Positions 18,663 through 38,221 of a stretch of 64,000 nt of DNA are shown here, piece after piece (the first letter of the stretch is position 1; each line of letters begins with the position of its first letter). The position numbers and the translations under genes were made by a program. The notes beneath the pieces are model-generated. The model was not told the origin of the DNA. It saw only the letters and a list, made by a program, of their open reading frames with translations, and did not search any database. Source of the stretch: Chitinophagaceae bacterium (lineage in GTDB: Bacteria; Bacteroidota; Bacteroidia; Chitinophagales; Chitinophagaceae); the NCBI GenBank assembly GCA_025449935.1, contig JANWIJ010000035.1, positions 1 to 64,000 of the forward strand, read 5' to 3'.

Positions 18663-19409
18663 TTATTCCAGGTGGTATTTTTCGTTTAAAAGTGCCAAAA
18701 GATTTTCTGCCTGTACTAACAATAATCTTATATCTCTCCGGATGGCTTTATTGAGGGCTTTCATGGAGAATAGCTTGTAATTGAATACATAAAGATCTTT
18801 TTTATCAAAGGGCAATAAAGCCGGGTTTTCACCCGTCAGCCTGCTGGGATTATTATCGGCATCCAGCATACCGTCAAAAATCAGCGCATTAAAAATGCGG
18901 GGGGCTGCTGTCCGGTAATCCTGGATCAGGGTTTCTTCCACTTCTCCCTGCCGCAGGGCACTCCGGATAATTACATCATATTTTGCTATGCTATCCGCAA
19001 TGGCACGGTTCCGGATAAGCCGGAAGGCCCCGGAATTCTTCAGCTGTTGCATGGTGCCATCATTGGGAATAAACCGGATGGTGAGGGTGCGTGCCGCTGT
19101 TACGGCATGAAAATATAATTCCCTGGAATATTCAGCAGGAGTGGCACTATTCAGCAAAAACATGATGGAGTCCTGGCTTGTTTCGCGGATGTTTCTTGCC
19201 TGTATGATCCGTTTAAAACTTGCTGTATCAGCCTTGATATCGTAAAATAATGACCGGATGAATTGTTTTTCGCGGTCTTTTTCTATTTTATGTTCCAACT
19301 GGTACTCGGCCAGGAACCCACAGAATACCGCGAGGAACAACATCAGGAATTCCCAGAAATAATGTGTCCATTTTTTGCGGGCTGTATGACTATGTGCATG
19401 TACTTCCAT
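18663..19409 (-). CDS. MEVH-family membrane protein, copy 1
   Basis: A 248-residue member. The membrane helix spans about residues 18-35, preceded by HAHSHTARKKW. The core motif DGTMQQLKNSGAFRLIRN lies at 117-134. The C-terminal part ends LLALLNEKYHLE. Its closest relative by eye is copy 9 (30016-30756): both have DGTMQQLKN, a DDNN stretch and a repeated leucine/alanine helix near the end, although they lie 11 kb apart. It is separated from copy 2 by 60 bp containing a short tRNA-like fragment, which is a larger gap than usual in the array. Confidence 0.88.
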   Translation of the reverse strand: MEVHAHSHTARKKWTHYFWEFLMLFLAVFCGFLAEYQLEHKIEKDREKQFIRSLFYDIKADTASFKRIIQARNIRETSQDSIMFLLNSATPAEYSRELYFHAVTAARTLTIRFIPNDGTMQQLKNSGAFRLIRNRAIADSIAKYDVIIRSALRQGEVEETLIQDYRTAAPRIFNALIFDGMLDADNNPSRLTGENPALLPFDKKDLYVFNYKLFSMKALNKAIRRDIRLLLVQAENLLALLNEKYHLE

Positions 19410-19469
19410 GAATTGGTTTATGGTTTGTAGTTGATGGTTTATAGTTCTGGGTTCGACTCCCGGCTTTTC

Positions 19470-20210
19470 TCAGTTCACCTGATACTGTTTTTGCAGGAAC
19501 TGCATGGTTTCAGTGGCCGAAAGCATTAATGATCTCAACCGGGTAATAATAACGATTGAAGTTGTTTTATACTGGTGAAGATAATAGGTCAGGTCCAGCA
19601 GCAGCTCCCGGTCCGTGGTCCGTAAACCCGGGTTACCGGGTGGCCTGTTGATCTCCATCCCGCGGATCATGGTTTCCAGAACATTTCCATCATATAACCT
19701 GGCCAGCAAAGGATACATCACCGATAATTCCTCGAACTCCCTTCCCTGGAGATAAACAATATAATCATTTGCCTGGTCATAGATCATAATAGCATTGGAT
19801 GCTTTTTGATTCCTGATCAGCCGGAGGCCGCCGGCGTTTTTTAATTGTTTGATGGTGCGGTCGTTAGCCTGGTACAGCGTTGACCGGGTTACCCGTCGTC
19901 CAAAATAATAGGCGGATGCACCATCCTGGTTGGGATCCGGGCCATTTAACAACCTGATCAGGGAGTCTATGATCAGTATTTTCGAATTCCGCAGTTGTAT
20001 ATTGGCCGTGATTTTTGCCGTGTCCTGCTTCAGGTCTTCCACGTAGGATTTGATAAATACCTTTTCACGTTTATGTTCAACATAATGTTCCCGCAGGTTC
20101 TCAACGAGGAACCCCGCACTGATCGCCAGGAACAGCATCAGGAACTCGAATAAATAATGCCTGAATGCCTTGGCGGCTTTTGGAGCAGCATGCGAATGAT
20201 GTACTTCCAT
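19470..20210 (-). CDS. MEVH-family membrane protein, copy 2 (divergent N-terminus)
   Basis: A 246-residue member and the only one with a changed leader: after MEVHHSHA it reads AAPKAAKAFRHYLFEF instead of RKKWTHYFWEF, and its helix has AISAGFLVE without the usual cysteine. The body is clearly related to copy 5 (26960-27694): both have LNxPDP, a YYF/YFF-R-TR segment, TIKQLxNxGGLRLIxNQ and PxGNPxLRT. It follows the APC permease gene by 16 bp and is therefore probably translated from the same message. Confidence 0.88.
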   Translation of the reverse strand: MEVHHSHAAPKAAKAFRHYLFEFLMLFLAISAGFLVENLREHYVEHKREKVFIKSYVEDLKQDTAKITANIQLRNSKILIIDSLIRLLNGPDPNQDGASAYYFGRRVTRSTLYQANDRTIKQLKNAGGLRLIRNQKASNAIMIYDQANDYIVYLQGREFEELSVMYPLLARLYDGNVLETMIRGMEINRPPGNPGLRTTDRELLLDLTYYLHQYKTTSIVIITRLRSLMLSATETMQFLQKQYQVN

Positions 20211-20226
20211 GGCCTGGGTATAAAAA

Positions 20227-21519
20227 TTATTGATTATTTCTTTCCCCTGTGCCTTTCAACCATTTGAATACAACAAAAAATATAATGCCGGGCAGCATAC
20301 AAACCGTAATGTCCAGTAATTCACTAAGCCGGGACGAGGTCAGCAGCCAGATAGAAAACAGGATGGCCGTTACTGCCAGGAAATTTCCAAACTGTACTTT
20401 AAAATAATCTTTTTTATCCGGATTTTTCCGGCGCAGCCTGATCATGGAGATACTTACCATCAGGTAGACCATCACCCTGATGATCGCCCCTATCGTCAGA
20501 GCGGCAAAAAAAGACCATACAAGGGACACAACCGTGGTGATGGCAATAAAAAGCAACAGCGACCAGGTCGGGGTAAGCCTTTTGGGATGAATGAAGGAAA
20601 ATACCTGCGGGAATTGTCCCTCACTGCTAAAAGCAAAGGGCAGGCGAGATCCACCTAAGACAATTGCATTCAGCGTACCGGTGATGGAAATGACTGCCCC
20701 GCCGGCGATAAGAATACCGCCCCATTTCCCCATAAAAAGATGTGCCGCGTCTGCCAGCGGCTTTTCAGATTGCGCCAACCCCGGAAGCGTGCCGATGGAG
20801 ACCAGTTGAATCAGGCAATAAAACAGTGTTATAAAAATAAAACCCGTAATGAGTGCGAAGGGCAGGTTTTTTCGCGGGTTATTTATTTCTCCCGTATTGA
20901 TCAGCACCGATTCGAACCCGCCAAAAGCAAATACCAGTAATAGTACCGAGGTAGAAAAAGAAGCAAACTGGAAAGGCTGGCTTGTATTCAGCGAACCGGG
21001 TTGGATATTGAACAAGCCAACGATAATAAAAGCAGTTAGCGGAAGTAATTTGGCAATCGTCAGGATATTATTTACGCGGGTAGAGTTTTTAACTCCTATA
21101 TGGTTGATGACCGTGAAAAAAGCAGTCAGCCCGAGAATACAGGCCATTCTTATTTCCGGGCGAGTGAATGCCGGGGAAAAAAAGGAAAGATAGATCACGA
21201 GCAGGTTGATCAGTGTGGCATAATTAAAGATCCGGCTGAGCAATAACAGCCAGCCGGTAAGAAAGGCCGGGAAAGGTCCGAGCGCATTGTAAGCATAGGT
21301 ATAGGGTCCGCCGGTTTTGTCAAACCTTGAACTTACTTCCGCAAAGCAGAGTATGAAGACCATCACAACGATGGCACAGGCCGCGAATGCCAGCAGGCTG
21401 TAAACCCCGGAGAGCGCAAACACTTTGGAAGGCAAACCGAAAATACCGGCGCCGATAATACTGTTGATGATCAGCAGGACCAGGCTCCATTTGCCGATAC
21501 TGCGTTTGAGCTGGGTCAT
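20227..21519 (-). CDS. APC superfamily amino acid permease
   Basis: A 430-residue transporter with about twelve hydrophobic segments. The first, LLIINSIIGAGIFGLPSK (about residues 15-32), contains the GAGIFG substrate-site loop typical of APC amino acid/polyamine transporters; FAFGGFESVLINTGE near the middle is the matching helix-6 region. Its start overlaps the stop of the DmpA-type peptidase gene by one base (TAATG), a sign of translational coupling. The pair could release amino acids outside the cytoplasm and take them up. The exact substrate is not known. Confidence 0.92.
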   Translation of the reverse strand: MTQLKRSIGKWSLVLLIINSIIGAGIFGLPSKVFALSGVYSLLAFAACAIVVMVFILCFAEVSSRFDKTGGPYTYAYNALGPFPAFLTGWLLLLSRIFNYATLINLLVIYLSFFSPAFTRPEIRMACILGLTAFFTVINHIGVKNSTRVNNILTIAKLLPLTAFIIVGLFNIQPGSLNTSQPFQFASFSTSVLLLVFAFGGFESVLINTGEINNPRKNLPFALITGFIFITLFYCLIQLVSIGTLPGLAQSEKPLADAAHLFMGKWGGILIAGGAVISITGTLNAIVLGGSRLPFAFSSEGQFPQVFSFIHPKRLTPTWSLLLFIAITTVVSLVWSFFAALTIGAIIRVMVYLMVSISMIRLRRKNPDKKDYFKVQFGNFLAVTAILFSIWLLTSSRLSELLDITVCMLPGIIFFVVFKWLKGTGERNNQ

Positions 21520-22682
21520 TATTTTTTTATCCGGTTGTATTTTTTCAACACATCCACCAGTAATTTATGTGGCAATGCATGTGCTTTGTTCCCATTAATT
21601 CCTTCCATGGTTTCCGCAGCTACCATAGCATTGATGATCGCTTCTTCGGTGGCCTGTACGGTCGCTTCAAAAAGCGGGTTGATCAGGTCATTGGGTAATT
21701 CATCCAGCTTTGTAAAATTTTGCCGCTGGAAAGCCCCGGGATTAGCCGTTGAAAAAGCAATAAAGATATCGCCGGAACTGTTTTCACCCTTTCCCCCAAC
21801 CCTGCCAATGCCGATCGGTACCCTGGCGGCAATTCTTTTCAGCTGGTGCGGTAATAATGGAGCATCCGTTGCTACCACCACAATGATGGAGCCATCGCCG
21901 TCCTGCCGGTAAGAGGGGGCGGCTTTAAATTCATAATTCAACGTGTCTCTTAATTCCCTGCCAACAGGAACTCCTTCCACGGTGAAATTTCGTTTGCCAC
22001 CGAAGTTTGATTGGACAAATACGCCCAGGGTATAGCTGGAGTCTTTTATTTTGAAAACCCGGGAAGAAGTGCCGGTACCGCCTTTGAAACCGAGGCACAT
22101 CATACCCGTACCACCGCCCACATTACCTTCTTTGATATAACCGGTGCGGGCGCTGTCGAGGGCTTCATAGGCATGGCTTTCTTTTACATGAAAGCCATAG
22201 ATATCATTTAAAAAACCATCATAGGTTTCAGCTACCACAGGATAGGTGTACCAGAAATCTTCCTTGTACCAACCTTTTTTTACATACCATTTTAATACAG
22301 CATCCCGGACCACGCCAACACTATTGGTGTTGGTGATCATCACGGGACCTTCCACGAATCCCGACTCGGTAATCCAGGTGGTGCCGGTCATTTCGCCGTT
22401 ACCGTTCAGCGAATACCAGTTGGCATAAACGGGATTATTGGTTCTTCCACGTGGCAGGATAGCAGTGACACCGGTGCGTACGGGTCCTTTTCCCCGGATA
22501 TTTTTTCCCTGGCCCGAGATGATGGTGCTGTAACCCACTTCCACACCCTTTACATCGGTGATGGCATTGAATGTGCCCGTGGTTCCCTCAAAAGGAACGC
22601 CTAACTCCCTTGCCCGGGGTTTTTGCGCAGCCGCGGTAAATACAAGAAACACCCATATCAGCATTGAGAGAATAAGTTTCAT
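21519..22682 (-). CDS. P1 family (DmpA-type) peptidase, exported
   Basis: A 387-residue N-terminal-nucleophile hydrolase with a signal peptide (to about residue 19, TAAA-Q). The DmpA/L-aminopeptidase D-esterase features are present: ITDVKGVEVGYST near the N-terminus, the GNVGGGTGMMCLGFKGGTG region and then TSSR, where self-cleavage before a serine produces the active nucleophile. Members remove N-terminal D- or L-amino acids or beta-amino acids from peptides. Periplasmic location is inferred from the signal peptide. Coupling to the permease gene fits a peptide or amino-acid uptake pair. Confidence 0.92.
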   Translation of the reverse strand: MKLILSMLIWVFLVFTAAAQKPRARELGVPFEGTTGTFNAITDVKGVEVGYSTIISGQGKNIRGKGPVRTGVTAILPRGRTNNPVYANWYSLNGNGEMTGTTWITESGFVEGPVMITNTNSVGVVRDAVLKWYVKKGWYKEDFWYTYPVVAETYDGFLNDIYGFHVKESHAYEALDSARTGYIKEGNVGGGTGMMCLGFKGGTGTSSRVFKIKDSSYTLGVFVQSNFGGKRNFTVEGVPVGRELRDTLNYEFKAAPSYRQDGDGSIIVVVATDAPLLPHQLKRIAARVPIGIGRVGGKGENSSGDIFIAFSTANPGAFQRQNFTKLDELPNDLINPLFEATVQATEEAIINAMVAAETMEGINGNKAHALPHKLLVDVLKKYNRIKK

Positions 22683-22761
22683 AATTATTTTTTTTTAAAA
22701 TGAATCACTGCTAATTGTTCAATCGTTAATTCCAGGCCTGCTCATTAAGCTTTATTTCCGT

Positions 22762-23952
22762 TTACAAATAACTCAGCCACCATTTTTCTTTATGGCTGGT
22801 TTTATAGGCATCGTACCATTTACATACCGGGTAAAGAGCCGCGACTATCAGTATCCAGAGCAGGTATACGATCCATAAACTCTCTCCCTCCCCGGGTTTT
22901 AAAAAATTGGGTGTCATCACTTCGTTGTTCAATCCTGAACTAAAGGAATGCCCCCTTGCGAAGAAGAAGATCATACTCACGAGGTGGATCAGGAAGAAAT
23001 GAAGGATATAATAAAAGAAAGGCACCCTGCCATAGACTGAAATGATCTGCCCGAACCTTCCGCCTGTTTTACGGAAGAAGGCCATGAAGATAATGGCGGG
23101 ACCGATCGTCATACACATATAAAGCAGGGAGGGCGGGTATTTATTCGTCTCCAAAAATGAATAAAGCGAGTTAAGCGGTTTGTCCGTGCCATTTATAACA
23201 TCGGGGTCTCCATACATATCCAATATTCTTACCGCGACAAAGAACAGAACGATTCCCATACCAAGCCATAACAGGATCTTTTTTTGTTCAGGTCCCCGGT
23301 TATTGGATAATAATTTACCAAAGCAATATCCCATCATCATCAGTCCGGCCCAGGGAAGAAAGGGGTAGAGTACCAGCAGGTGGAAACCGCCTCCCAGGTT
23401 GAAGAGATTCGGCCGGTGAAGAAGATGATAGCCCATGCTTAAACTGTTGGGATGATCTCTTTCATAAAAATCCAGGCTGTTGTGGCCAAGCACGATCAGT
23501 AAACCAAGGAACAATACGAGGGGGAAGGGGAGCCAGATCACGAGACCAAGAATGACCATACTGATACCGATGGACCAGATGGTCTGTAAACCGATCTCGT
23601 TGAAATGCACATCAAAACTAAACGCAAAATTAATGACTGTGATTTCAATAAGAATCAGCCAGAAACCTCTTTTGATCAGGAAAAGACTTAATTCTTTTTT
23701 AGTTTTCTTCAGGCTTTGCAGGTAGGCCGAAGCCCCGGACAGGAACACAAAGACTGGCGCACAGAAATGCGTGATCCAGCGGGTGAAGTAAAGCGCCGGG
23801 TAAGTGGTGGCCGGGTTAAGCGGATCTTCCGTGAACGCGGCATGGTGAAAAAAATCGCGGGTATGATCAAGTGCCATGATGATCATGACCAGCCCGCGGA
23901 GCAGATCAATGGATTCAATTCTTTTTTGACTGAGGTTTAATGCCGGTTCCAT
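22762..23952 (-). CDS. DUF1624 membrane protein (acyltransferase-like), first of a tandem pair
   Basis: A 396-residue polytopic membrane protein. The N-terminal RIESIDLLRGLVMIIMALDH and the following HFCAPVFVFLSGASAYL are the DUF1624 signature; the family is related to eukaryotic heparan-alpha-glucosaminide N-acetyltransferase, whose catalytic His corresponds to the conserved ALDH. It could transfer an acyl group across the inner membrane to an envelope glycan. Its C-terminus (CKWYDAYKTSHKEKWWLSYL) is nearly the same as that of the next gene, showing a recent duplication. Confidence 0.9.
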   Translation of the reverse strand: MEPALNLSQKRIESIDLLRGLVMIIMALDHTRDFFHHAAFTEDPLNPATTYPALYFTRWITHFCAPVFVFLSGASAYLQSLKKTKKELSLFLIKRGFWLILIEITVINFAFSFDVHFNEIGLQTIWSIGISMVILGLVIWLPFPLVLFLGLLIVLGHNSLDFYERDHPNSLSMGYHLLHRPNLFNLGGGFHLLVLYPFLPWAGLMMMGYCFGKLLSNNRGPEQKKILLWLGMGIVLFFVAVRILDMYGDPDVINGTDKPLNSLYSFLETNKYPPSLLYMCMTIGPAIIFMAFFRKTGGRFGQIISVYGRVPFFYYILHFFLIHLVSMIFFFARGHSFSSGLNNEVMTPNFLKPGEGESLWIVYLLWILIVAALYPVCKWYDAYKTSHKEKWWLSYL

Positions 23953-23984
23953 GATTAATATTGTTGTTTAGTCTTCGTGGCCAG

Positions 23985-25187
23985 CTACAAGTAACTCAGC
24001 CACCATTTTTCTTTATGCCTGGTTTTATAGTTATCGTACCATTTACATAAGGGATAGAGAGCGATTACCACGAAGATCCAGACTGCATAGACCACCCAGA
24101 GGTTATATCCTTCGCCGGGAGCCAAAAAATAGAAAGGAAAAAAGCTGCTCGTATTTGGCGCGTCCTGCAGCGAATGCCCCCGGGCCAGGAAAGCGATGGC
24201 CGAAAGCAGGTGCACCAGGTATATATGCAGCACATAGTAAAAGAAAGCAACCCGGCCATAGGTACGCATAACAGCTGTAAAGCGGTTCCTGGTATTTTCT
24301 AAAACCACCAGCAATAACAGGGCAGGGCCGATGGTTATACATATATATAATAGCGAAGGCGGGTATTTATTTACATTGATAAAAGACAGAAAGCTGTAGA
24401 AACCATTTTTTTGCCCGCTCCAGTCAACGGGATCACCATAGAGGTTTGAAAACCGGAGAACAATAAAAAACAGGATCAACCCGAGTCCTGAACGCAGGAG
24501 CCATTTCTTCCGCTGGGTGGCCGTAACGGCAGGAGAAAACCAGCGCCCCGCACAATAACCCAGCAGCATCAGGCCTGTCCATGCCAGGAATGGATAGGCA
24601 ATCAGGATTACATGACCCGGAGCATAGGGATGTACCGAGAACCTCGCACTGTGGAGGAGGTCCACCAGGAACCCCGGTTTAAAACCTGGCCTCGATTCAG
24701 GTATATCCAAAAGATTATGACCGGCCACGATCAACAGGCCCAGGACTAAGATTACATTAAAGGGCAGATATATCAGCAATCCCAAAATGACCATACTGAT
24801 CCCGATGGCCCAGATCACCTGCAGGAATAAAAAATTATAATTGGGGTTAAAGGACCAGGCAAAGGAAACCAGCAGCAGCTCAACGATGATCAGCCACAAG
24901 CCCCGTTTGATCAAAAAAGCACTGAGTTCTTTTTTTGTCTTGCGCAGGCTTTGCAGGTAAACGGAGGCACCGGAAAGAAATACAAAAATGGGGGCACAGA
25001 AATGGGTGATCCACCGGGTGAAATAGAGGGCCGGGGTGGTCGTGGCCAGGTTGAGGGGATTATCGAGGTTAGCCGCAATATGGAAATAATCACGGACATG
25101 ATCCAGGGCCATGATCACCATCACTATTCCCCGGAGAATATCTATGGAATCAATTCTTTTTTGCTGAAGAGAAGTTGAGGATTGCAT
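23985..25187 (-). CDS. DUF1624 membrane protein (acyltransferase-like), second of a tandem pair
   Basis: A 400-residue paralogue of the downstream gene with the same landmarks: RIDSIDILRGIVMVIMALDH, HFCAPIFVFLSGASVYLQSLRK, and the ending CKWYDNYKTRHKEKWWLSYL. About ten transmembrane helices are visible. The two genes are 32 bp apart, and the next gene upstream is array copy 3, 29 bp away, so the pair is embedded in the array transcript. Differences are concentrated in the loops around residues 160-270, which may reflect different acceptors. Confidence 0.9.
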   Translation of the reverse strand: MQSSTSLQQKRIDSIDILRGIVMVIMALDHVRDYFHIAANLDNPLNLATTTPALYFTRWITHFCAPIFVFLSGASVYLQSLRKTKKELSAFLIKRGLWLIIVELLLVSFAWSFNPNYNFLFLQVIWAIGISMVILGLLIYLPFNVILVLGLLIVAGHNLLDIPESRPGFKPGFLVDLLHSARFSVHPYAPGHVILIAYPFLAWTGLMLLGYCAGRWFSPAVTATQRKKWLLRSGLGLILFFIVLRFSNLYGDPVDWSGQKNGFYSFLSFINVNKYPPSLLYICITIGPALLLLVVLENTRNRFTAVMRTYGRVAFFYYVLHIYLVHLLSAIAFLARGHSLQDAPNTSSFFPFYFLAPGEGYNLWVVYAVWIFVVIALYPLCKWYDNYKTRHKEKWWLSYL

Positions 25188-25216: not shown

Positions 25217-25957
25217 TTATTCCAGGTGATATTTTTCTTTTAAATAAACCACCAGGTCTTCCGCACTTTTTTCCAGGTTTTTCAATATCAGCAATTTTGA
25301 TCGTCTTGACCCGTTCATTTGCAAGGTATGAAACCCCATCTCTTTCAGCAGGGCGTCATCATAGGTTCTGAGCACAGGATTGTCCGTACTTCTCAGGATT
25401 TCTCCTTTATCAGTTTCCTGCCGTCTTAAAATCGCAGGGTCAAGAATTTTTGCCGCAATGTTTTTAAAATTATCAAATTCCTGGTTGTAGTTATCTTCCA
25501 GTAGCCGTAAGAGGGAGAATTGGTTATAATAATCCATTATTTTGTTAGAGGCCTCCGGGTACCGGATAAGACGAAATCCGCCGGAAAATTTCAGCTGGTC
25601 AAAGGTCCGGCTGTTGTTGGCGAAAGGAATATACCTCGGCCCAATCCTTGCCACATAATATAACTGATCGCCCTGTTGTTTTGCCAGGTCAGGGTTATTC
25701 AGCAAATTCATCAGTGTATCAAGACTTGCTATACCAAACCGTTCCGACTCCACCATGGTGGCCAGGATCTTTTTATCATCCCCCAGGTCAGCCACCAGTG
25801 ATTTTATGAACTGCTTTTCCCGGTCCTTTTCAATTTTGTGTTCTAACTGGTATTCGGCCAGGAAACCGCAGAACACGGCGAGGAACAACATGATGAACTC
25901 CCAAAAATAATGGGTCCATTTTTTTCGCGAAGAATGACTATGATGATGAACTTCCAT
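25217..25957 (-). CDS. MEVH-family membrane protein, copy 3
   Basis: A 246-residue member if translation begins at the family-conserved ATG at 25957; the frame stays open to 25984 with nine extra residues that no other copy has. Its leader HHHSHSSRKKW and EYQLEHKIEKDREKQF match copies 1, 5 and 10. The core is RTFDQLKFSGGFRLIRYPEAS, and a tyrosine-rich helix (IMDYYNQFSLLRLLEDNYNQ) follows. It ends LVVYLKEKYHLE. It is the first copy downstream of a 173-bp spacer that holds no recognisable gene. Confidence 0.88.
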   Translation of the reverse strand: MEVHHHSHSSRKKWTHYFWEFIMLFLAVFCGFLAEYQLEHKIEKDREKQFIKSLVADLGDDKKILATMVESERFGIASLDTLMNLLNNPDLAKQQGDQLYYVARIGPRYIPFANNSRTFDQLKFSGGFRLIRYPEASNKIMDYYNQFSLLRLLEDNYNQEFDNFKNIAAKILDPAILRRQETDKGEILRSTDNPVLRTYDDALLKEMGFHTLQMNGSRRSKLLILKNLEKSAEDLVVYLKEKYHLE

Positions 25958-26130
25958 ATTGGTGACTTGTAGTTTTGGTGACACGGAAGTTTTCAGGAGG
26001 GATTATTGCAAAAGATAATTATTTTTTTCCGGCTGGACTTGAATGATTCAACAGGTAATGTTACAGGTCTGTTTACATGGGAAGCGATCAACCACGCCTA
26101 TGCCGGCATCCCCTTTCTATACCCGTTGTT

Positions 26131-26898
26131 TCATTCGAGGTGAAAGTTAGCGGTAAGCTCGTCTATTATTTTCGTGGCTAATTGCAAAGCATCATTTGCG
26201 TTTTTAAGTTGCTGCCGGAGGTTCCTGGAACGGCACATTTCCGCATATTCATTAAAGACTATCTTATCCGAAGATAATAACGGCGGGTTGGTCTGAATAA
26301 ATGAGTCAATCACGGATTGGTTGAATTGCCCATACACTGCTTCGCGGACTATAGTGTTGGCCGCATTGTTGAACCTGAAATCAAATAGCCTGGCCCGCAG
26401 TTTACGCACTTCCAGTTGTACCGGCAGATCGACCAGCGTAAGGGTCTGTATGCTTCGCATCAGCTGGTCGTAATTGCTTATTTGCTGTTCCAGGCCCGGC
26501 GATAAAAAATAGCGTAAGGAACCCGAGCTTTTCATTTGCTGAAAGGTGGCATCATTGGATTGAAATCCCCTGAGATATCCGCCAAACAATCCATACCAGT
26601 AGAGTTTGCCCGTTGGAATTTTTGTTAAATCGCCGGAGGTGAGCAATAACAGGAAAGTATCCAGGTAATTGGCGGCAAAAGTACCCCGGTAAACAATTTG
26701 TTTTAATTCCGCTGTATCTACCTGCAGGTTTGCCCTCATGGTAGCCGCATAAACCTTTGCCCGCTGGTGCTCTATATAATGCTCCCGTTTATTTTCAACA
26801 AAAAAACCAAGCGTTACCGCAAGAAACAACATTAAAAACTCCCAGAAATAGTGCGTCCATTTTTTGCGGGCAGTATGACTATGACGATGAACTTCCAT
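26131..26898 (-). CDS. MEVH-family membrane protein, copy 4 (LRYF subtype)
   Basis: About 255 residues from the conserved ATG at 26898. An ATG three codons earlier (26907) overlaps the stop of a micro-ORF as ATGA and might be used instead. The helix reads AVTLGFFVE, lacking the usual FCGF cysteine. The core is TFQQMKSSGSLRYFLSPGLEQQ, which belongs to a subtype with LRYF in place of LRLIR (also copies 7, 14 and 18). It ends LTANFHLE. Confidence 0.86.
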   Translation of the reverse strand: MEVHRHSHTARKKWTHYFWEFLMLFLAVTLGFFVENKREHYIEHQRAKVYAATMRANLQVDTAELKQIVYRGTFAANYLDTFLLLLTSGDLTKIPTGKLYWYGLFGGYLRGFQSNDATFQQMKSSGSLRYFLSPGLEQQISNYDQLMRSIQTLTLVDLPVQLEVRKLRARLFDFRFNNAANTIVREAVYGQFNQSVIDSFIQTNPPLLSSDKIVFNEYAEMCRSRNLRQQLKNANDALQLATKIIDELTANFHLE

Positions 26899-26903
26899 AT
26901 TAC

Positions 26904-26954
26904 TCATATTTCTTTTTTAATCCTTGCCGTATGTGAATGTGCATGTACTTCCAT
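26904..26954 (-). pseudogene. micro-remnant of an MEVH-family gene
   Basis: A 16-codon frame reads MEVHAHSHTARIKKEI and then stops. The first 11 residues equal the start of a normal copy, and IKKE resembles the C-terminal motif (for example LIKKEYRLK in copy 10), as if the whole middle of a gene had been deleted between the two. It starts 5 bp after the stop of copy 5 and its stop overlaps the first possible start of copy 4. Confidence 0.6.
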
Positions 26955-26959
26955 AAAAA

Positions 26960-27694: not shown

Positions 27695-27698
27695 AAAT

Positions 27699-28475: not shown

Positions 28476-28482
28476 AGCTTGT

Positions 28483-29268: not shown

Positions 29269-29274
29269 GTCGAT

Positions 29275-30009
29275 CTATTTTAAATGATACTCCTTTTTAA
29301 GAAAATTCATGAGACCCAAGGCGCTTTGCCTGGTAAAAGCATAAGCCTTTATGTCCGAACCGCATCTTACCCTCAGCGATATGCACTGGTTGATTAACTC
29401 ATTTAAATACTGACTGTTTAGCCTGATAGCTTGCGCGAGGGGCTTTTTCCCAAAAAAAGTTGAATCATAAAGCGTCCGGAGCAGGTCATGACCACTGACT
29501 GTTTTTTTCATCGCTTCTGTAAAATCATGCGTGGCCTCGTTGGTAATTGCCCGTCGAACTTCTAATCTCCTCATCAGCCGGTCATAATTTTCCATGGAAT
29601 CAACCGCGTTTCTTTTCCGGATCAGCCGCATGCCGCCGGAGCTTTTTAATTGGGTGATCGTTCCGTTATTCGGGAAAAACATGATCTGTATTTCCGCTTT
29701 TTTTAAGTACAGGTATGCCTCCAGCGGCATCGACGCCTGGTCTTGTGCCGGGAGGGCTGAAAGTGCCGAGTCAATATGCTGAATCCTTGACAGGGCTGAG
29801 TATTCGACTGTATCCAGCCAGGCGATGTCAAGTTTTAAATCATTTACCAGAGAAGTAACAAATTGTTTTTCTCTTTTATGTTCGATCATATGCTCCCGCT
29901 GGTTCTCCGCTAAAAACCCGCAGAACACGGCGAGAAACAGCATGATGAACTCCCAGAAATAATGCGTCCATTTTTTCCGGGCCGTATGGCTGTGTGCATG
30001 TACTTCCAT
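29275..30009 (-). CDS. MEVH-family membrane protein, copy 8
   Basis: A 244-residue member. Leader HAHSHTARKKW, helix with FCGF, then ENQREHMIEHKREKQF. The core is GTITQLKSSGGMRLIRKRNAVDS, followed by an arginine-rich helix (MRRLEVRRAIT). A region near residue 200 has two cysteines (INQCISLRVRCGSD), which is unusual in the array. It ends LMNFLKKEYHLK. Confidence 0.88.
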   Translation of the reverse strand: MEVHAHSHTARKKWTHYFWEFIMLFLAVFCGFLAENQREHMIEHKREKQFVTSLVNDLKLDIAWLDTVEYSALSRIQHIDSALSALPAQDQASMPLEAYLYLKKAEIQIMFFPNNGTITQLKSSGGMRLIRKRNAVDSMENYDRLMRRLEVRRAITNEATHDFTEAMKKTVSGHDLLRTLYDSTFFGKKPLAQAIRLNSQYLNELINQCISLRVRCGSDIKAYAFTRQSALGLMNFLKKEYHLK

Positions 30010-30015
30010 AAAAAA

Positions 30016-30756: not shown

Positions 30757-30761
30757 GTTGC

Positions 30762-30890
30762 TTAGGTTATTTTATTAAGCCTTACCCAGATGCCGGCGCC
30801 TTCAGGCCGGCATTCCGACCGGCTTCGCCGCGTCGGAAAATAGTGAGTCCATTTGTTCCGTGTAGTATGTGCATGGTGGTGTACTTCCAT
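30762..30890 (-). pseudogene. truncated MEVH-family copy A, fused to repeat element
   Basis: The frame starts MEVHHHAHTTRNKWTHYF as in a normal copy and then passes straight into a GC-rich hairpin repeat, coding 24 unrelated residues before a stop. The break comes within the codon for the Phe of HYF. Copy 10 ends 5 bp upstream and copy 9 starts 5 bp downstream. It retains the leader but no membrane helix, so it cannot be a functional family member. Confidence 0.75.
30782..30838. repeat. two-hairpin GC-rich repeat element, copy 1
   Basis: Starts TTACCCAGATGCCGGC. Hairpin one pairs ATGCCGGC (30790-30797) with GCCGGCAT (30806-30813); hairpin two pairs TTCCGAC (30813-30819) with GTCGGAA (30832-30838), with an inner CGGC/GCCG stem. 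A near-identical copy is at 35677-35733 and a partial one at 37365-37396, each joined to a truncated array gene. It resembles REP-type elements. Confidence 0.7.
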
Positions 30891-30895
30891 TCTGT

Positions 30896-31630
30896 TTATT
30901 TAAGGCGATATTCTTTTTTAATTAATTCAATAAGTTTTTGGGCTGCCAGGTTCCGTTCGTTCCCGATCTTTTCCGCCAGGAAAAATGCACCGTACAGGTA
31001 TTGTGCGCTCGTCGCCAGCTCGTTTAGCGCCACCCGGTCTTCTGTCAGCAAATCGGATACAACCGCAGGCTGCTCCTTTTTCTCTTTTATTATTTTCAGC
31101 AATAACCCGGCATCAAATACTCTTCCCATTTCTTTTCCAAAATTGGAACCCCAGGTAATGGCCGCGTCGTTGTATTTTTTTAAATCTATTACTGAGAAAT
31201 AATAATGGGAAACACTGCTGGCTACCTGTTTGCTCCTGATAAGCCGCAAGGCCCCCGAACTTTTCATTTCTTCGTAGGTACGGTCCGTGGTGAACAGCGC
31301 TTTATACCTCGGCAGGATCATCCTGGCCGTAAAAGCCAGCCTGGCAATATGCTGTTTTCGTTCCGGGCTTTTTATAAGTACTACCAGTGTATCAAGGGAG
31401 CTGAACAGTACTTTGTTATTTCTTGTATACTCGCTATAAATAGCTGTGTCGGCTTTTAAATCTTCCAGCAGGTTTTGCGCATAAACTCTTTCTTTATCTC
31501 TTTCAATTTTATGTTCCAACTGGTACTCCGCTAAAAACCCGCAGAAAACCGCGAGGAATAGCATGAGGAATTCCCAAAAATAGTGGGTCCATTTTTTGCG
31601 CGATGAATGACTATGATGGTGTACTTCCAT
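30896..31630 (-). CDS. MEVH-family membrane protein, copy 10
   Basis: A 244-residue member. Leader HHHSHSSRKKW, then EYQLEHKIERDKERVYAQNL. The core is RTYEEMKSSGALRLIRSKQVASS, with Glu-Met where most copies have Gln-Leu. A segment KKYNDAAITWGSNFGKE follows. It ends LIELIKKEYRLK. Its ATG directly follows the TAA of copy 11 with no base between, the tightest junction in the array. Confidence 0.88.
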   Translation of the reverse strand: MEVHHHSHSSRKKWTHYFWEFLMLFLAVFCGFLAEYQLEHKIERDKERVYAQNLLEDLKADTAIYSEYTRNNKVLFSSLDTLVVLIKSPERKQHIARLAFTARMILPRYKALFTTDRTYEEMKSSGALRLIRSKQVASSVSHYYFSVIDLKKYNDAAITWGSNFGKEMGRVFDAGLLLKIIKEKKEQPAVVSDLLTEDRVALNELATSAQYLYGAFFLAEKIGNERNLAAQKLIELIKKEYRLK

Positions 31631-32395
31631 TTATTTTAAGTGATATTTTTCTTTAAGCAACCCGAGCAACTCTGTAGCATTTTCTCTCAATGGCAGCAGG
31701 TGTTGGCGGTTTTGCATTTTGTAAATGCCGGTTTCAAACTTAAGCCAGCCGGTAAATTCCTTCATCAATCCCGGATCATCATTTATCAGGGGAAGGGTTA
31801 ACGTGAAAACGGAATCCCTTACCAAATCAAAGCCCGTCTCAAAATCCTCCTTGGACGATAATTCCTGGGTTATGTAACCATCAAATATCTTAAAATAGAG
31901 CTCTTCAATTCTTGAAAATTCAGATTTGGTCAGCTGGTATTCATTTTCAAGACTGCTCAGGCTTTTGCTGTAGTTGCTTATTTTCTGGGATATATCATTC
32001 CCCATGATCCGCAGGTTACCGGACCCCTTCAGTTGTTCGATGGTGGTATTACTGGATTCGAAAAAGTCAATCATGGTGGTGAAGGAGCCATAATAGTAAA
32101 GCATGCTGTTCGTAATATTTCGTTTTTCCTTTTCAGTGCTGTAGAGGCAAAAAGTATCCAGTTTGGCAATAACCCTTTTAGTTCCTTCCAGCATGTCATT
32201 CAAACTGGCCGTATCCTTTTTCAGTTCTTCATGGAGATTGGCCGCGTAAACTTTTGCCCGCTGGTGCTCGACAATATGTTCCCGTTTGTTTTCGGCCAGG
32301 AAACCACAAAAAACTGCCAGGAACAACATTAAAAATTCCCAGAAATAGTGGGTCCATTTTTTTCGCGGGGTATGGGTATGGCTATGTACTTCCAT
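31631..32395 (-). CDS. MEVH-family membrane protein, copy 11
   Basis: A 254-residue member with leader HSHTHTPRKKW and ENKREHIVEHQRAKVYAANL. The core TTIEQLKGSGNLRIMGNDISQK replaces the usual RLIRN by RIMGN. The next helix (SLSSLENEYQLTKSEFSRIEEL) is predicted to be a coiled coil by its heptad spacing. It ends LGLLKEKYHLK. Six bases separate it from copy 12. Confidence 0.88.
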   Translation of the reverse strand: MEVHSHTHTPRKKWTHYFWEFLMLFLAVFCGFLAENKREHIVEHQRAKVYAANLHEELKKDTASLNDMLEGTKRVIAKLDTFCLYSTEKEKRNITNSMLYYYGSFTTMIDFFESSNTTIEQLKGSGNLRIMGNDISQKISNYSKSLSSLENEYQLTKSEFSRIEELYFKIFDGYITQELSSKEDFETGFDLVRDSVFTLTLPLINDDPGLMKEFTGWLKFETGIYKMQNRQHLLPLRENATELLGLLKEKYHLK

Positions 32396-32401
32396 TTGAA
32401 T

Positions 32402-33184
32402 TTACTTTAAATGGTAATTTTCCTGGATTACCTGTATCAGTTCACCGATTAATTTTTGCAAATTGCTGTATCCCCAGTTCATGTTATTTTCATAATCTCT
32501 CCTGAGTGCTATTAATGCATTTTTAAATTCAAAAAACAATCCTGTTTGATTTTCTGCTGTTAGTGGCACTTTGTTTTTCTCCACCAGTGTGTCAATCCAC
32601 TTATTGGCAGCATACGGAGCAGGGCTAAGGTCATATTTTTTATATATTTCTGTAATCACTTTTTCCGAAAATACCCGGCTTCGTAAGGCTACTGCATTTT
32701 CATAAAATTTATTGTGCTGCAGGGCAATGTTCCTGACAGCATCGTTATTGAACTGGTCGTAAGCAATTATTTTATAAGCAACTGTTTTGTTCCTGATGAG
32801 CCGGAAACCCCCGGAATTTTTCAATTGAGTGATTGTCCTGTCATTATATGAAAAACTCCAGTAATTAAGCGCTTCATTCATATGCCGGTAGGCTTTACGG
32901 AGGTCCACTTCGGGCATTGGAAGAGTAATAGCATCTGTAACAGAGTCTATGCTGTTATTTACAGCCGCCCAGTATTTAATAGTGGTATTGAGCAGTATTG
33001 TATCTGCTTTAAGATCTTCCAGCAAGGTAACCATATACTGTTTTTCCCGTTTGTGCTCTACCTGGTGTTCCCGGAAATTTTCTGCCAGGAACCCGCAGAA
33101 CACGGCGAGGAATAACATGAGAAATTCCCAAAAATAATGGGTCCATTTTTTCCGCGCCGTATGACTATGATGGTGTACTTCCAT
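32402..33184 (-). CDS. MEVH-family membrane protein, copy 12
   Basis: A 260-residue member. Leader HHHSHTARKKW, helix with FCGF, then ENFREHQVEHKREKQY, a form shared with copy 14. The core is RTITQLKNSGGFRLIRNKTVAYK. The body is rich in Asn and aromatic residues (DQFNNDAVRNIALQHNKFYE). It ends IQVIQENYHLK. Five bases separate it from copy 13. Confidence 0.88.
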   Translation of the reverse strand: MEVHHHSHTARKKWTHYFWEFLMLFLAVFCGFLAENFREHQVEHKREKQYMVTLLEDLKADTILLNTTIKYWAAVNNSIDSVTDAITLPMPEVDLRKAYRHMNEALNYWSFSYNDRTITQLKNSGGFRLIRNKTVAYKIIAYDQFNNDAVRNIALQHNKFYENAVALRSRVFSEKVITEIYKKYDLSPAPYAANKWIDTLVEKNKVPLTAENQTGLFFEFKNALIALRRDYENNMNWGYSNLQKLIGELIQVIQENYHLK

Positions 33185-33189
33185 TGGAT

Positions 33190-33933
33190 CTAATTCTTAA
33201 AATGATATTTCGTGGAAAAATAATTTATCAGGGAGATGGCTCTTTTATTCAGGTGTTGAAAGTTTTCATACTGGCCTATTACCAGCTGTTCATAGCGTGT
33301 TATCGCTATGAACATCCTGTCGATTTTGCCCTGGTCGGAAGTCCTGATCAGCCGGGAACCGGGGGCAAATGTCATTTCCCGCGGCTGTAAAACACTTTTA
33401 TACAGCACATCATAGTCCAAAACATCAGCATAAACAGAGCGAAGTATAGACTGTGCCTCCTGTACGCCCGTTCTTTCTCCCTGTAAAAATTCCCTTATTT
33501 CAGCATCGTAGGCTGTAATACTGTCGGCGTCCTGTTTGGCGATCAATCGTAAGGCTCCTGAACTTTTGAGTTGTTGCAATGTCCTGTCGGCGGAAATGAA
33601 ATCAGGGAAACCGATGGATGAAACAAGGATGTTGCTGAAACATTGGTTGTACTCCCCGTGATCCCGGATCAGTAAAAAGCAGGCATGGTTATCTTTCAGC
33701 ATTCTCATTTTCCAGTCATACTCCTGCACCAGCCAGTTATAAGTGGCGGTGTCGGTTTTCAGGTCGGCCAGGAAGCTTCTCAGGTATTCTTTACCCCGCC
33801 GGTGCTCTACTTTGTGTTCCCGGATATTCTCCGCGTAAAAACCTGCAATGACAGCGAGAAAGAGCATCAGGAACTCCCAGAAATAGTGGGTCCATTTTTT
33901 TCTCGGGGTATGCGTGTGTGCGTGTACTTCCAT
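33190..33933 (-). CDS. MEVH-family membrane protein, copy 13
   Basis: A 247-residue member. Leader HAHTHTPRKKW. The helix reads AVIAGFYAENIRE, without cysteine, and the next segment is EHKVEHRRGKEYLRSF. The core RTLQQLKSSGALRLIAKQDADS has lost the arginine of LRLIR. The ending STKYHFKN carries an extra Asn and a Phe in place of Leu. Upstream lies a 150-bp spacer with a possible C-terminal remnant of another copy. Confidence 0.88.
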   Translation of the reverse strand: MEVHAHTHTPRKKWTHYFWEFLMLFLAVIAGFYAENIREHKVEHRRGKEYLRSFLADLKTDTATYNWLVQEYDWKMRMLKDNHACFLLIRDHGEYNQCFSNILVSSIGFPDFISADRTLQQLKSSGALRLIAKQDADSITAYDAEIREFLQGERTGVQEAQSILRSVYADVLDYDVLYKSVLQPREMTFAPGSRLIRTSDQGKIDRMFIAITRYEQLVIGQYENFQHLNKRAISLINYFSTKYHFKN

Positions 33934-34083
33934 AAAAATTATTTCAACCGGTATTGCAGTTAGGATTGACCAGGTGTAGATATCGGACAGCCTGCACAGG
34001 GGTTATTTCCCGGATTATATGCTTCTCAGGGGCTGGAAATCCTAAGTTTTAAGATAAGCCGTTTAGATCAAAAATGGGTTGTT
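33934..34083 (-). pseudogene. spacer with possible C-terminal remnant of an MEVH-family copy
   Basis: This is the second-largest gap between adjacent full copies. On the minus strand, just before the start of copy 13, codons read LQYRLK and a TAA (33939-33962), resembling the common KEYRLK/KEYHLK ending at the position where a preceding gene would normally stop. Nothing else in the gap resembles the family. A six-residue match is weak evidence. Confidence 0.3.
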
Positions 34084-34854: not shown

Positions 34855-34861
34855 AAATATA

Positions 34862-35650
34862 TCAGGGTTGTATTTCTTTTATGTGGTATTCTTTCTTCAA
34901 TAAGGCGATCAATTGCCGGTTGAACAGGACGGCTTTCTCAAGCTTAGAAAGGTAGTTAGTCTGAAGCGAATGGGAACTGCGCACGCCATTTCGAAAAACG
35001 ACAATTCTACCGGGATTGTTATCTATTAGTCCCAGTGAATCATTTGCTGCGACCTGCATCAGGCTGTCCGTGTTATCAACTACAGAGGCTTCAATAACTT
35101 TCAGGATTTTAGCGGTACCTGACAGGTCAAAAAGATAATTCGCTTGCTGGTTTTCAAAGTTGATGAGAAACTGCCAGCAATCGTCTGATTGCTTCAATGC
35201 CTCGACCTTGGCCTTTTCATACTGATTTATCGTTTTTACAACTTCTTCTTTCCGGATAAGACGCAAGGCTCCGGCATTCTTCAATTGTGTGCTCGTGTTT
35301 TCATTGAAAGCTGTGGTAGTGCCACTTTGCCCATATTTAAGATAAATGATATAAACAAAATCAAGATTCCTTTTTACGGTAAGTGGTTGTCGAAGAGCGA
35401 GTATCAGCGTATCGAGCCCTTTTAAGTTATAGTTCAGATATTTTATGTTATTCTGCAGGGATGCTGAATCGCTTTGCAGGTCTGAGAAAAGGGATTTCAT
35501 GTATTTTTTTTCCCGCTGATGCTCTATCATATGTTCTCTCTTATTCTCTGCCAGAAAACCGCAGAACACAGCAAGAAACAACATTAAAAATTCCCAGAAA
35601 TAATGCGTCCATTTTTTCCGCGAAGAATGACTATGATGATGAACTTCCAT
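34862..35650 (-). CDS. MEVH-family membrane protein, copy 15
   Basis: A 262-residue member, the longest. Leader HHHSHSSRKKW and ENKREHMIEHQREKKYMKSL. The core is TSTQLKNAGALRLIRKEEVVKT. A cysteine/tryptophan pair (DDCWQFLINFENQQ) follows. The tail is extended beyond the usual end: KKEYHIKEIQP. It starts 26 bp after the stop of truncated copy B, and both lie at one of the hairpin repeats. Confidence 0.88.
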   Translation of the reverse strand: MEVHHHSHSSRKKWTHYFWEFLMLFLAVFCGFLAENKREHMIEHQREKKYMKSLFSDLQSDSASLQNNIKYLNYNLKGLDTLILALRQPLTVKRNLDFVYIIYLKYGQSGTTTAFNENTSTQLKNAGALRLIRKEEVVKTINQYEKAKVEALKQSDDCWQFLINFENQQANYLFDLSGTAKILKVIEASVVDNTDSLMQVAANDSLGLIDNNPGRIVVFRNGVRSSHSLQTNYLSKLEKAVLFNRQLIALLKKEYHIKEIQP

Positions 35651-35676
35651 GTTTGATTATTTTTCCTGGTTATTCC

Positions 35677-35733
35677 TTACCCAGATGCCGGCGCCTTTGG
35701 GCCGGCATTCCGACCGGCTCCGCCGCGTCGGAA
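35677..35733. repeat. two-hairpin GC-rich repeat element, copy 2
   Basis: Near-identical to 30782-30838: TTACCCAGATGCCGGCGCC, GCCGGCAT, then TTCCGAC paired with GTCGGAA. The loop of hairpin one differs (TTTGG for TTCAG), as does one base in hairpin two, consistent with separate insertions or old duplication. The junction with the family DNA is at the same place as in copy A. Confidence 0.7.
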
Positions 35734-35744
35734 AATAATGCGTC

Positions 35745-35764
35745 CCTGCCTGCCGGCAGGCAGG
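35745..35764. repeat. 20-bp perfect palindrome inserted in a gene copy
   Basis: CCTGCCTGCCGGCAGGCAGG is its own reverse complement. Removing it restores GCGTCCATTTTTT, the sequence present at this place in the other copies (for example near 36515 with GGGTCC). A similar palindrome with one mismatch lies at 39952-39971. Confidence 0.75.
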
Positions 35765-35811
35765 CATTTTTTTCGGGCGCTATGTGAATGGGCATGTACT
35801 TCCATAAAAAG

Positions 35812-36552: not shown

Positions 36553-36555
36553 GAA

Positions 36556-37338: not shown

Positions 37339-37344
37339 GTTAGA

Positions 37345-37434
37345 TTATTTTTCTTGGTTATACCTTACCCTGCAGCCGGCGCATTCAGGTTGGCATTTTT
37401 TCCGGGCCGAATGGCTGTCTGTATGTACTTCCAT
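37345..37434 (-). pseudogene. truncated MEVH-family copy C, fused to partial repeat
   Basis: The frame starts MEVHTDSHSARKK and then diverges at the tryptophan codon into a degenerate form of hairpin one of the repeat, stopping after 29 residues. Its 3' tail (GGGTAAGGTATAACC and the following A-run) is very similar to that behind copy B, and both precede an MEVHHHSHSSRKKW gene. It begins 7 bp after copy 18. Confidence 0.7.
37365..37396. repeat. partial hairpin repeat element, copy 3
   Basis: TTACCCTGCAGCCGGCGC followed by ATTCAGGTTGGCAT matches the first hairpin of the elements at 30782 and 35677 with several mismatches; the second hairpin is missing. It is joined to truncated copy C. Confidence 0.5.
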
Positions 37435-37441
37435 AAATATT

Positions 37442-38221
37442 TTATTTCAGGTGATAATTACCGGTCAACAAACGCATAATTTCTTCAGCATCGGAGATGA
37501 CCTTCGGGTAGTAAATTTCTGTAAAGGGAGATAATTTTGATTTATGCCGGACAATCTCATTAAAATATTCTTCCATTAGTTTTTCCGATCCCTGCTGCAG
37601 CGGTAATTGCAGGGCAAATAATGAATCAATTTGCCGGTTAGCGGGTGGCATATTATTTTCTACCGGGACTTTCAAATTTGCAAAAAATATAAAATAGCGG
37701 CTAAGAATAATACGGTTAAGGGTTTCCATGAGCTTATCCCTGTGTGAAGCATGAATCTGGTTGCTTAAAAAAAGGGCATTTTCAAAAGCATAATACTGAC
37801 TGATCTTTTGCACCAGGTTTTTATCAGCGAAATACCTGAGGTTTCCGGATTGTATTATTTGATCCATGGTAGACCTATTCCAGTCTATGCGGTAAATGTC
37901 TGTTGTAAACTTGCTGTAGTAATAGAATTTACCAGGAACGCCTTTATTGGAGTTGATGGACGTGGCCATTGATAATACACTGTCAATAGCGGAAATAGTA
38001 AATTTTGTTTCAACCAGTCCTTGTTTTAATTCGGCTGTATCATTCCGAATGTCGTTTAACAGGCTTCTGGCATATTCTTTAGCCCGATGTTTTTCGACAA
38101 TATGCTCCCGTTTGTTTTCTGCCAAAAATCCGCAGAATACAGCGAGGAACAACATTAAAAATTCCCAGAAATAGTGTGTCCATTTTTTCCGGTCCGTATG
38201 GCTGTGGGCATGTACTTCCAT
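37442..38221 (-). CDS. MEVH-family membrane protein, copy 18 (LRYF subtype, promoter-proximal)
   Basis: A 259-residue member and the first gene of the array in transcription order. Leader HAHSHTDRKKW with Asp in place of Ala; ENKREHIVEKHRAKEYARSL follows the helix. The core is STMDQIIQSGNLRYFADKNLVQK. The middle is aromatic-rich (SRYFIFFANL). It ends LLTGNYHLK. About 160 bp separate it from the upstream CarboxypepD_reg-like gene; any array promoter should be there, although no TAnnTTTG element is seen. Confidence 0.88.
   Translation of the reverse strand: MEVHAHSHTDRKKWTHYFWEFLMLFLAVFCGFLAENKREHIVEKHRAKEYARSLLNDIRNDTAELKQGLVETKFTISAIDSVLSMATSINSNKGVPGKFYYYSKFTTDIYRIDWNRSTMDQIIQSGNLRYFADKNLVQKISQYYAFENALFLSNQIHASHRDKLMETLNRIILSRYFIFFANLKVPVENNMPPANRQIDSLFALQLPLQQGSEKLMEEYFNEIVRHKSKLSPFTEIYYPKVISDAEEIMRLLTGNYHLK

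What the first reader, a model, noticed from the sequence alone, without database searches (positions are those of the whole stretch)
18663..38221. Eighteen-copy tandem array of a His-leader single-helix membrane protein
Seen: 18 intact same-strand copies plus five decayed ones in 20 kb, with a near-constant N-terminus (MEVHxHxH, RKKWTHYFWEF, AVFCGF helix), a moderately conserved QLKxSGxLRLIRN-like core and a short conserved end, but very divergent middles. Inference: a constant membrane anchor with a variable exposed body is the layout expected of a diversifying surface, sensing or immunity repertoire. I know of no described function for this family.
Basis: partly seen in the sequence, partly recalled or inferred. 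Interest (0 to 1): 0.9.

Follow-up and report, generated by a model that had tools for sequence, protein, structure and literature searches.

The report
Swappable periplasmic anchor-protein gene array
A bacterium of the Bacteroidota carries eighteen neighbouring copies of an undescribed membrane-anchored protein that share one anchor but have very different, individually conserved bodies; related species hold different subsets of the same bodies, some apparently traded between them, which looks like a shared library of parts whose job is still unknown.

Summary
In detail: 18 intact same-strand copies, plus three elsewhere in the genome. I find four N-terminal stubs, not five. Four ordinary genes interrupt the array.

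Window proteins scanned match no Pfam or NCBIfam model above cut-off, but the family is a full-length distant homologue of DUF6090 (hhalign 98.9%), whose genes also form tandem arrays. The model is one membrane helix plus a four-helix bundle (pLDDT 95). The membrane-near half is conserved; the far half differs between copies.

Rapid diversification is not supported. Copies in one genome are old (best body match, median 32%). Most bodies have their closest relative in another species (202 of 211) and are under purifying selection (median omega 0.13). Genomes hold different subsets of 160 body types seen, from none to 33 matches. Two window copies show signs of cross-species transfer. Codons 1-42, the anchor, carry excess synonymous change and conflicting ancestry, so bodies appear to be exchanged by recombination within anchor-coding DNA.

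Function is inferred: interchangeable periplasmic specificity modules on a common membrane partner. The best candidate is an HGSNAT-type acyltransferase encoded directly downstream in 12 genomes. Toxin immunity is the main rival; no recurrent toxin gene was found beside them.

The parts
18663..19409 (-). copy c01, 248 aa
   Evidence: ORF, family match E 7.8e-90
19470..20210 (-). copy c02, 246 aa, variant anchor
   Evidence: E 2.9e-82
25217..25957 (-). copy c03 (listed ORF reaches 25984 from an upstream GTG), 246 aa; directly upstream of the HGSNAT_cat gene 23985-25187
26131..26907 (-). copy c04, 258 aa
26960..27694 (-). copy c05, 244 aa, body type T8; structure modelled; four-fold difference to the L057 copy 0.22 against 0.58 and 0.72 for two flanking genes
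27699..28475 (-). copy c06, 258 aa, body type T1; four-fold difference to the L064 and L066 copies 0.19
28483..29268 (-). copy c07, 261 aa, body type T4; 91% body identity to a copy in another genus at 4-fold difference 0.53 (omega 0.03)
29275..30009 (-). copy c08, 244 aa
30016..30756 (-). copy c09, 246 aa, type T10
30896..31630 (-). copy c10, 244 aa, type T13
31631..32395 (-). copy c11, 254 aa, type T22
32402..33184 (-). copy c12, 260 aa, type T11
33190..33933 (-). copy c13, 247 aa
34084..34854 (-). copy c14, 256 aa, type T3
34862..35650 (-). copy c15, 262 aa
35812..36552 (-). copy c16, 246 aa
36556..37338 (-). copy c17, 260 aa
37442..38221 (-). copy c18, 259 aa
26908..26959 (-). N-terminal stub (start of the constant region only, about 11 codons)
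30757..30895 (-). gap with an N-terminal stub (18 codons, 30837-30890) followed by a short GC-rich palindromic element
35651..35811 (-). gap with an N-terminal stub (13 codons) and palindromic elements
37339..37441 (-). gap with an N-terminal stub (about 13 codons)
23985..25187 (-). HGSNAT_cat membrane acyltransferase-like gene directly downstream of c03; candidate common partner (inferred)
   Evidence: PF07786 E 1.8e-16; recurrent adjacency
22762..23952 (-). second HGSNAT_cat gene
   Evidence: PF07786 E 2.7e-14
21519..22682 (-). S58 peptidase inside the array
   Evidence: PF03576 E 1.7e-116
20227..21519 (-). amino-acid permease inside the array
   Evidence: PF13520 E 4.8e-51
17919..18464 (-). 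conserved flank gene (no Pfam hit; 'CarD-like' is my recalled label), marks one edge of the locus
   Evidence: 79-87% identical homologues among the best 12 listed at related loci
38382..39203 (-). conserved flank gene (CarboxypepD_reg matches below cut-off), other edge of the locus

Best explanation
The array is a repertoire of inner-membrane-anchored, periplasm-facing four-helix proteins. The constant first 42 or so residues (HxHxH tail plus transmembrane helix with an invariant Glu) and the membrane-near half of the bundle dock on a common membrane partner; the membrane-far half carries a type-specific binding face. Each body type is an old, separately conserved module. Species hold different subsets, often at one conserved chromosomal locus, gain modules from other species, lose them to stubs, and change them by homologous recombination inside the constant anchor-coding DNA. 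Supported by computation: the array, old types, cross-species sharing, two likely transfers, a recombination signal in codons 1-42, purifying selection, the fold prediction. Inferred: topology, docking role, ligand binding, and the HGSNAT_cat membrane acyltransferase as partner. I hold the evolutionary part at about 0.85 and the biochemical part at about 0.3.
For: Of 265 full-length members, 202 of 211 in genomes with at least four copies have their best body match in another genome (8 in the same); within-genome best identity median 32%, between-genome median 62%; no within-genome match reaches 60% (0 of 207; two types occur twice in one genome). Replicate in a second genus: 29 of 29. Transfer: c05 differs from its L057 counterpart at 0.22 and c06 from its L064/L066 counterparts at 0.19 of four-fold sites, against 0.58-0.72 for the one or two flanking genes compared in the same genome pairs. 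Recombination: in the closest pair of each of 18 types, codons 1-42 differ more synonymously than the body in 16 (Wilcoxon p 0.0003), while five body segments show no rise (p 0.18-0.90); sister-pair conflict in 38 of 171 triplets for codons 1-42 against 0.00-0.08 for body segments (triplets are not independent); a further genome gives 6 of 7 (types partly the same). Selection: median omega 0.13 over 23 pairs. Conservation falls with estimated height above the membrane (rho -0.41). HGSNAT_cat-like gene directly downstream in 12 genomes, always on that side, and also in G324; strong HGSNAT_cat hits in 15 of 16 genomes with the family and 0 of 7 without (Fisher 3e-5).
Against: No ligand, partner contact or phenotype is shown. 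The HGSNAT threshold (E 1e-11) and the 23 genomes were picked after seeing data, the genomes are related, several of the 12 adjacencies share one syntenic locus, and in six of the 15 genomes with a strong hit no such gene adjoins a family gene. The predicted co-travel of the next gene's anchor with a body was not found (7 types, 0.41 against 0.37 for own anchor). Anchors within one genome are hardly more alike than between genomes (0.456 against 0.469). For T1, several pairs show low synonymous divergence, so a slow rate in that type is not wholly excluded. A faster synonymous rate in the anchor could mimic part of the signal, though the older control pairs and the sister-pair conflict argue against it. 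Two of the 18 types go the other way.
Confidence: 0.4

Rival explanations
1. Immunity repertoire: each body neutralises one toxin or bacteriocin acting at the inner membrane or in the periplasm, as in the T7SS immunity gene strings of Firmicutes; the constant anchor places the protein at the membrane.
For: Very close analogue in behaviour: esaG, tipC and tsaI are tandem strings of non-identical immunity genes; for esaG and tipC recombination runs through conserved blocks; tsaI has one conserved 5' block over its first two membrane helices (PMC9484751, abstract and passages). Near one-of-each-type repertoires, cross-species exchange and stubs fit.
Against: No recurrent toxin-like gene next to family members: of 119 adjacent genes (judged by eye from the start of one representative per cluster) I Pfam-scanned 20 representatives; one was a Fic/DOC protein (L087) and one a patatin-like protein (L088), each seen once. 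No confident PADLOC or PHROGs placement. Strong purifying selection even in the variable half (omega 0.16) is not what an arms race would give. Toxins encoded elsewhere in the genome were not searched for.
Confidence: 0.25
2. Sensory repertoire: the bodies are periplasmic ligand sensors that signal through partner kinases or regulators.
Confidence: 0.15
3. Selectively neutral amplification: recent unequal crossing-over made copies that then decayed.
For: Tandem, same-strand copies and four stubs.
Against: Copies are old (at most 44% body identity within the window's genome), types examined are under purifying selection, and most have closer relatives in other species.
Confidence: 0.04
4. Antigenically varying surface protein.
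For: Constant anchor plus bodies that differ between copies.
Against: Bodies are conserved within a type; inner-membrane anchor with a predicted periplasmic body (inference); all 18 copies are intact reading frames with their own start rather than silent cassettes beside one expressed gene.
Confidence: 0.05

Closest known systems
DUF6090 (Pfam PF19578), function unknown
   Same: Similar length and layout; profile-profile probability 98.9%, E 1.4e-17 over 221 columns; also in tandem arrays (13 matches within 13 kb in G152); window-type genes, recognised by eye or by my profile, sit beside or within about 3 kb of DUF6090 genes in G152, G184 and in the named loci L103, L105, L114
   Different: Different anchor (MIxFFRKIRQ...YAxGE against MEVHxHxHxxRKKWTHYFWEF); none of 10 window proteins scanned alone matches PF19578 and 5 of 127 relatives match it at E 0.1 or better
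T7SS immunity gene strings of Firmicutes (EsaG, TipC, TsaI/DUF443)
   Same: Tandem strings of non-identical paralogues with conserved blocks; recombination through the blocks for EsaG and TipC; TsaI has a conserved membrane start and variable rest (PMC9484751, abstract and passages)
   Different: Another phylum; copies there vary within one species and, for tsaI, lie beside the secreted toxin gene; here types are shared between species and no recurrent toxin gene was found. Folds were not compared
S. aureus tandem lipoprotein (lpl) genes
   Same: Copy-number variation through a conserved block of about 130 nt (as cited in PMC9484751, passage)
   Different: Lipoproteins; recombination block central in the gene
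Chemoreceptor periplasmic four-helix-bundle ligand-binding domains
   Different: No second membrane helix, no signalling domain in the model; Z not above the level of unrelated bundles

Membership tests
DUF6090 (PF19578) | Match to the Pfam model over its cut-off | tested here: not met
   No match in 10 window proteins scanned nor in the whole genome (the control genomes also gave none, but the model rings in 13 of 149 genomes of the class, 10 over the cut-off)
DUF6090 (PF19578) | Homology over the full length | tested here: met
   hhalign 98.9%, 221 columns, E 1.4e-17; 5 of 127 relatives match the model, best 1.9e-9
DUF6090 (PF19578) | Same predicted fold | not tested
   Job for a DUF6090 protein had not finished at the last collection
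T7SS-type immunity gene string | Tandem non-identical paralogues with conserved blocks | tested here: met
T7SS-type immunity gene string | Recombination within conserved blocks | tested here: met
   Signal in codons 1-42; the downstream-anchor prediction failed
T7SS-type immunity gene string | Cognate toxin gene at the locus | tested here: inconclusive
   No recurrent toxin among 119 adjacent genes by eye; of 20 representatives Pfam-scanned, one Fic/DOC and one patatin-like protein, each once
T7SS-type immunity gene string | Neutralises a toxin | not testable with these tools
   needs experiment
Four-helix-bundle chemoreceptor sensor | Fold match above unrelated bundles | tested here: inconclusive
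Four-helix-bundle chemoreceptor sensor | Second membrane helix and cytoplasmic signalling domain | tested here: not met
   Model ends at residue 244 just after the last helix, 199-241
Anti-phage defence (PADLOC) or phage family (PHROGs) | Confident profile match | tested here: not met
   Only single-member matches among 127, best 1.4e-3

The most novel reading that the evidence does not exclude
Bacteroidota share a species-crossing library of interchangeable periplasmic specificity modules, spanning this family and DUF6090, that plug through one constant membrane anchor into a common membrane enzyme; recombination inside the anchor-coding DNA lets a genome swap specificities without changing the socket.
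Probability: 0.3. Interest if true: 0.85.

Novelty: new variant of a known kind. Interest (0 to 1): 0.62.

Why it matters
Recombining paralogue arrays with a constant part and a variable part are known (T7SS immunity genes, S. aureus lpl; PMC9484751, passages). Here the same logic appears in Bacteroidota in a protein superfamily for which my searches of an open-licence full-text library found no paper (DUF6090 and PF19578: 0 papers each), with up to 29 modules in one locus, types that are old and conserved yet seem to move between species. It gives a testable prediction: different modules compete for one partner through the same anchor. If true, it would explain a large class of hypothetical genes in this phylum.

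Tried and rejected
Recent amplification and gene conversion as the cause of the constant start: rejected. Four-fold sites in the constant region (0.52-0.64) are nearly as diverged as in the bodies (0.50-0.77 over the later regions), and anchors are hardly homogenised within genomes (0.456 against 0.469, 1 of 300 label shuffles as low). A weak block signal between 17 window anchors exists (top-10 shared runs 32.9 nt against 28.7 in shuffles, 2 of 300 as high).

Rigid cassette (body plus the next gene's anchor travelling together): tested and not found. The DNA block of c06 does begin at its start codon and end in the next gene's anchor, but that end is expected from anchor conservation alone.

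First body-identity table: its rows had unequal lengths, so I do not use its numbers; replace it.

Phage or plasmid carriage: 1 distant match in a pattern scan of IMG/VR contigs; none in plasmids for the one copy tried, c05. Fold search: no Foldseek hit at E 0.001. Type-specific neighbours: none seen; HGSNAT_cat follows many different types. Promoter and terminator scan: 41 promoter-like sites against 29.7 expected and 14 terminator-like against 14.6, not informative. Literature: DUF6090, PF19578 and three word combinations gave no paper; DUF1624 with Bacteroidetes gave one listing that looked unrelated.

Limits: the 69 loci are the best 80 of 246 candidates for this family, so they favour near relatives; many are MAG contigs; copy counts were capped at nine scored per genome; partial members (model start after 12 or end before 236) were dropped before the type analysis; other genomes are only partly fetched; loci were assigned to genomes by me from record names. 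Closest-pair analyses use one pair per type with body difference under 0.36. One search compares whole frames; the body-only values for the same pairs are 0.16-0.23.
Full report
WHAT IS THERE. The window holds 18 intact minus-strand genes of 244-262 aa at 18663-20210 and 25217-38221, three more copies lie on contig C17 of the same genome, and four N-terminal stubs lie in the gaps. Nine of 15 junctions in the main block are 0-7 nt. Four unrelated genes (amino-acid permease, S58 peptidase, two HGSNAT_cat proteins) sit inside the array at 20227-25187. Residues 11-33 are 0.88 identical between copies; 63-115 and 145-225 only 0.12-0.18. The genome belongs to the same GTDB genus as G385, whose contig 1 has the length (2,260,640) of the record NFUV01000001 of Chitinophagaceae bacterium IBVUCB2, so I place it in Chitinophagaceae by inference.

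WHAT FAMILY. None of 10 window proteins matches a Pfam model above its cut-off and none of 8 matches NCBIfam. Among 127 relatives, DUF6090 matches 5, best 1.9e-9 (25 of 72 weak families shown); NCBIfam gives only scattered weak matches. A profile of those 127 aligns with 27 DUF6090-type proteins over 221 columns at 98.9% probability. DUF6090 genes also form tandem arrays (G152, G184, G180), and window-type genes stand beside or within about 3 kb of them in G152, G184 and in the named loci L103 (Cognataquiflexum), L105 (Aquiflexum) and L114 (Algoriphagus lacus). I read the two as sister families of one superfamily.

DISTRIBUTION. Matches occur in 19 of 58 genomes of the 'relatives' set, the window's own included, with 0-22 matches each, and in 77 of 298 genomes of the order at E 1e-6. 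G324, another genus, has 33 matches, 29 of them full-length in one same-strand locus of about 51 kb. Of 69 loci from named records, 67 hold at least one full-length copy in my scan, 46 at least two, 18 at least five. The locus is often syntenic: PurN and a CarboxypepD_reg-like gene on one side, a conserved 181-aa gene and DUF418 or an amidohydrolase on the other.

THE BODIES ARE OLD AND SHARED. Of 265 non-redundant full-length members, grouping bodies at 58% identity gives 160 types, 46 in two or more genomes and 21 in three or more. In genomes with at least four copies, 202 of 211 members have their best match in another genome and 8 in the same; within-genome best identity has median 32% and none of 207 reaches 60%, though two types occur twice in one genome (57-59% identity); the highest value in the window's genome is 44%. 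In G324, 29 of 29 have their best match elsewhere. Selection within types is purifying: median omega 0.13 for bodies, 0.16 for the membrane-far half and 0.08 for the near half over 23 pairs; c07 and its G324 counterpart are 91% identical at four-fold difference 0.53 (omega 0.03). This is the opposite of a hypervariable surface antigen.

TRANSFER. c05 and its L057 counterpart differ at 0.22 of four-fold sites, while two flanking genes of the same genome pair differ at 0.58 and 0.72. c06 and its L064/L066 counterparts differ at 0.19, against 0.58-0.67 for the two flanking genes compared with L064 and one with L066. c06 and the G324 copy differ at 0.20, four other genes of the locus at 0.66-0.74 (two of these may be paralogues). 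Other shared window types (T3, T10, T13) differ at 0.43-0.63, nearer the flanks. For T1 a slow rate could explain part of the low values; for T8 other pairs reach 0.55-0.69, so a transfer is the simpler reading.

RECOMBINATION IN THE ANCHOR CODONS. In the closest pairs (11 types with body difference under 0.30) synonymous codon differences are 0.32-0.41 over codons 1-42 and 0.13-0.21 over every later bin, although residues 16-42 are the most conserved at protein level (0.98); pairs with old bodies (14) show no such step. Over 18 types the anchor is higher in 16 (p 0.0003); five body segments of the same length show p 0.18-0.90. Conflict of sister pairs is 38 of 171 triplets for the anchor and 0.00-0.08 for body segments; triplets overlap, so this is a comparison, not a test. 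A further genome, G324, gives 6 of 7 (p 0.03; types partly the same). Against a simple cassette: the following gene's anchor does not travel with the body.

PARTNER. An HGSNAT_cat-like gene lies directly downstream of a family gene in 12 genomes (13 listings, L108 and L134 being one locus), never upstream, after many different body types, and in G324 too. Strong HGSNAT_cat hits (E 1e-11 or better) occur in 15 of 16 genomes with the family and 0 of 7 without. The threshold and genomes were chosen after the fact and the genomes are related, so this is a lead, not proof. A cluster of beta-lactamase-fold hydrolases (representative PF00144) is adjacent in 10 genomes, and amidohydrolases, peptidases, penicillin amidase, M19 dipeptidase and permeases recur nearby. 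Of 20 adjacent representatives scanned, a Fic/DOC and a patatin-like protein are the only possibly toxin-like ones, each seen once.

VERDICT. Best reading: interchangeable periplasmic specificity modules on a common membrane partner, kept as a species-crossing library. Nearest behavioural analogue: T7SS immunity strings (PMC9484751; abstract and passages read), which keeps toxin immunity as the main rival. Neither biochemical role is shown here.

Noticed in passing
window 30757-30895, 35651-35811; L070:1430-1600, L110:900-1440: Short GC-rich palindromes are inserted at the same spot of the constant region in decayed copies of different genomes; the element after the stubs at 30757 and 35651 is 95% identical over 63 nt and its core occurs only twice in the window's genome.
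   Followed up: partly
window 1-25187; L176-L178 (G324); L085, L097: The neighbourhood is rich in enzymes for unusual amide bonds: amidohydrolase and S58 peptidase in the window, beta-lactamase-fold hydrolases, penicillin amidase and M19 dipeptidase at related loci, and look-alikes of the latter two, named by eye, in G324.
   Followed up: partly
L170, L171, L173 (G152, G184, G180): DUF6090-type genes form tightly packed tandem arrays with a constant start and divergent rest, in G152 and G184 near window-type genes.
   Followed up: partly
L105:12360-12920, L171:9968-14781: Some DUF6090-type proteins carry an in-frame insert like DLPAGKAGN in the constant start, which may come from a similar palindromic element.
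   Followed up: no
window 17919-18464: A 181-aa gene with no Pfam match is 79-87% identical in the best 12 of its listed homologues beside these arrays.
   Followed up: no
L184 (IMG/VR contig): One distant relative (27% identity) on a viral-collection contig of 6.1 kb.
   Followed up: no
L087:4216-5349: A Fic/DOC-domain gene stands next to a family gene at one locus.
   Followed up: no
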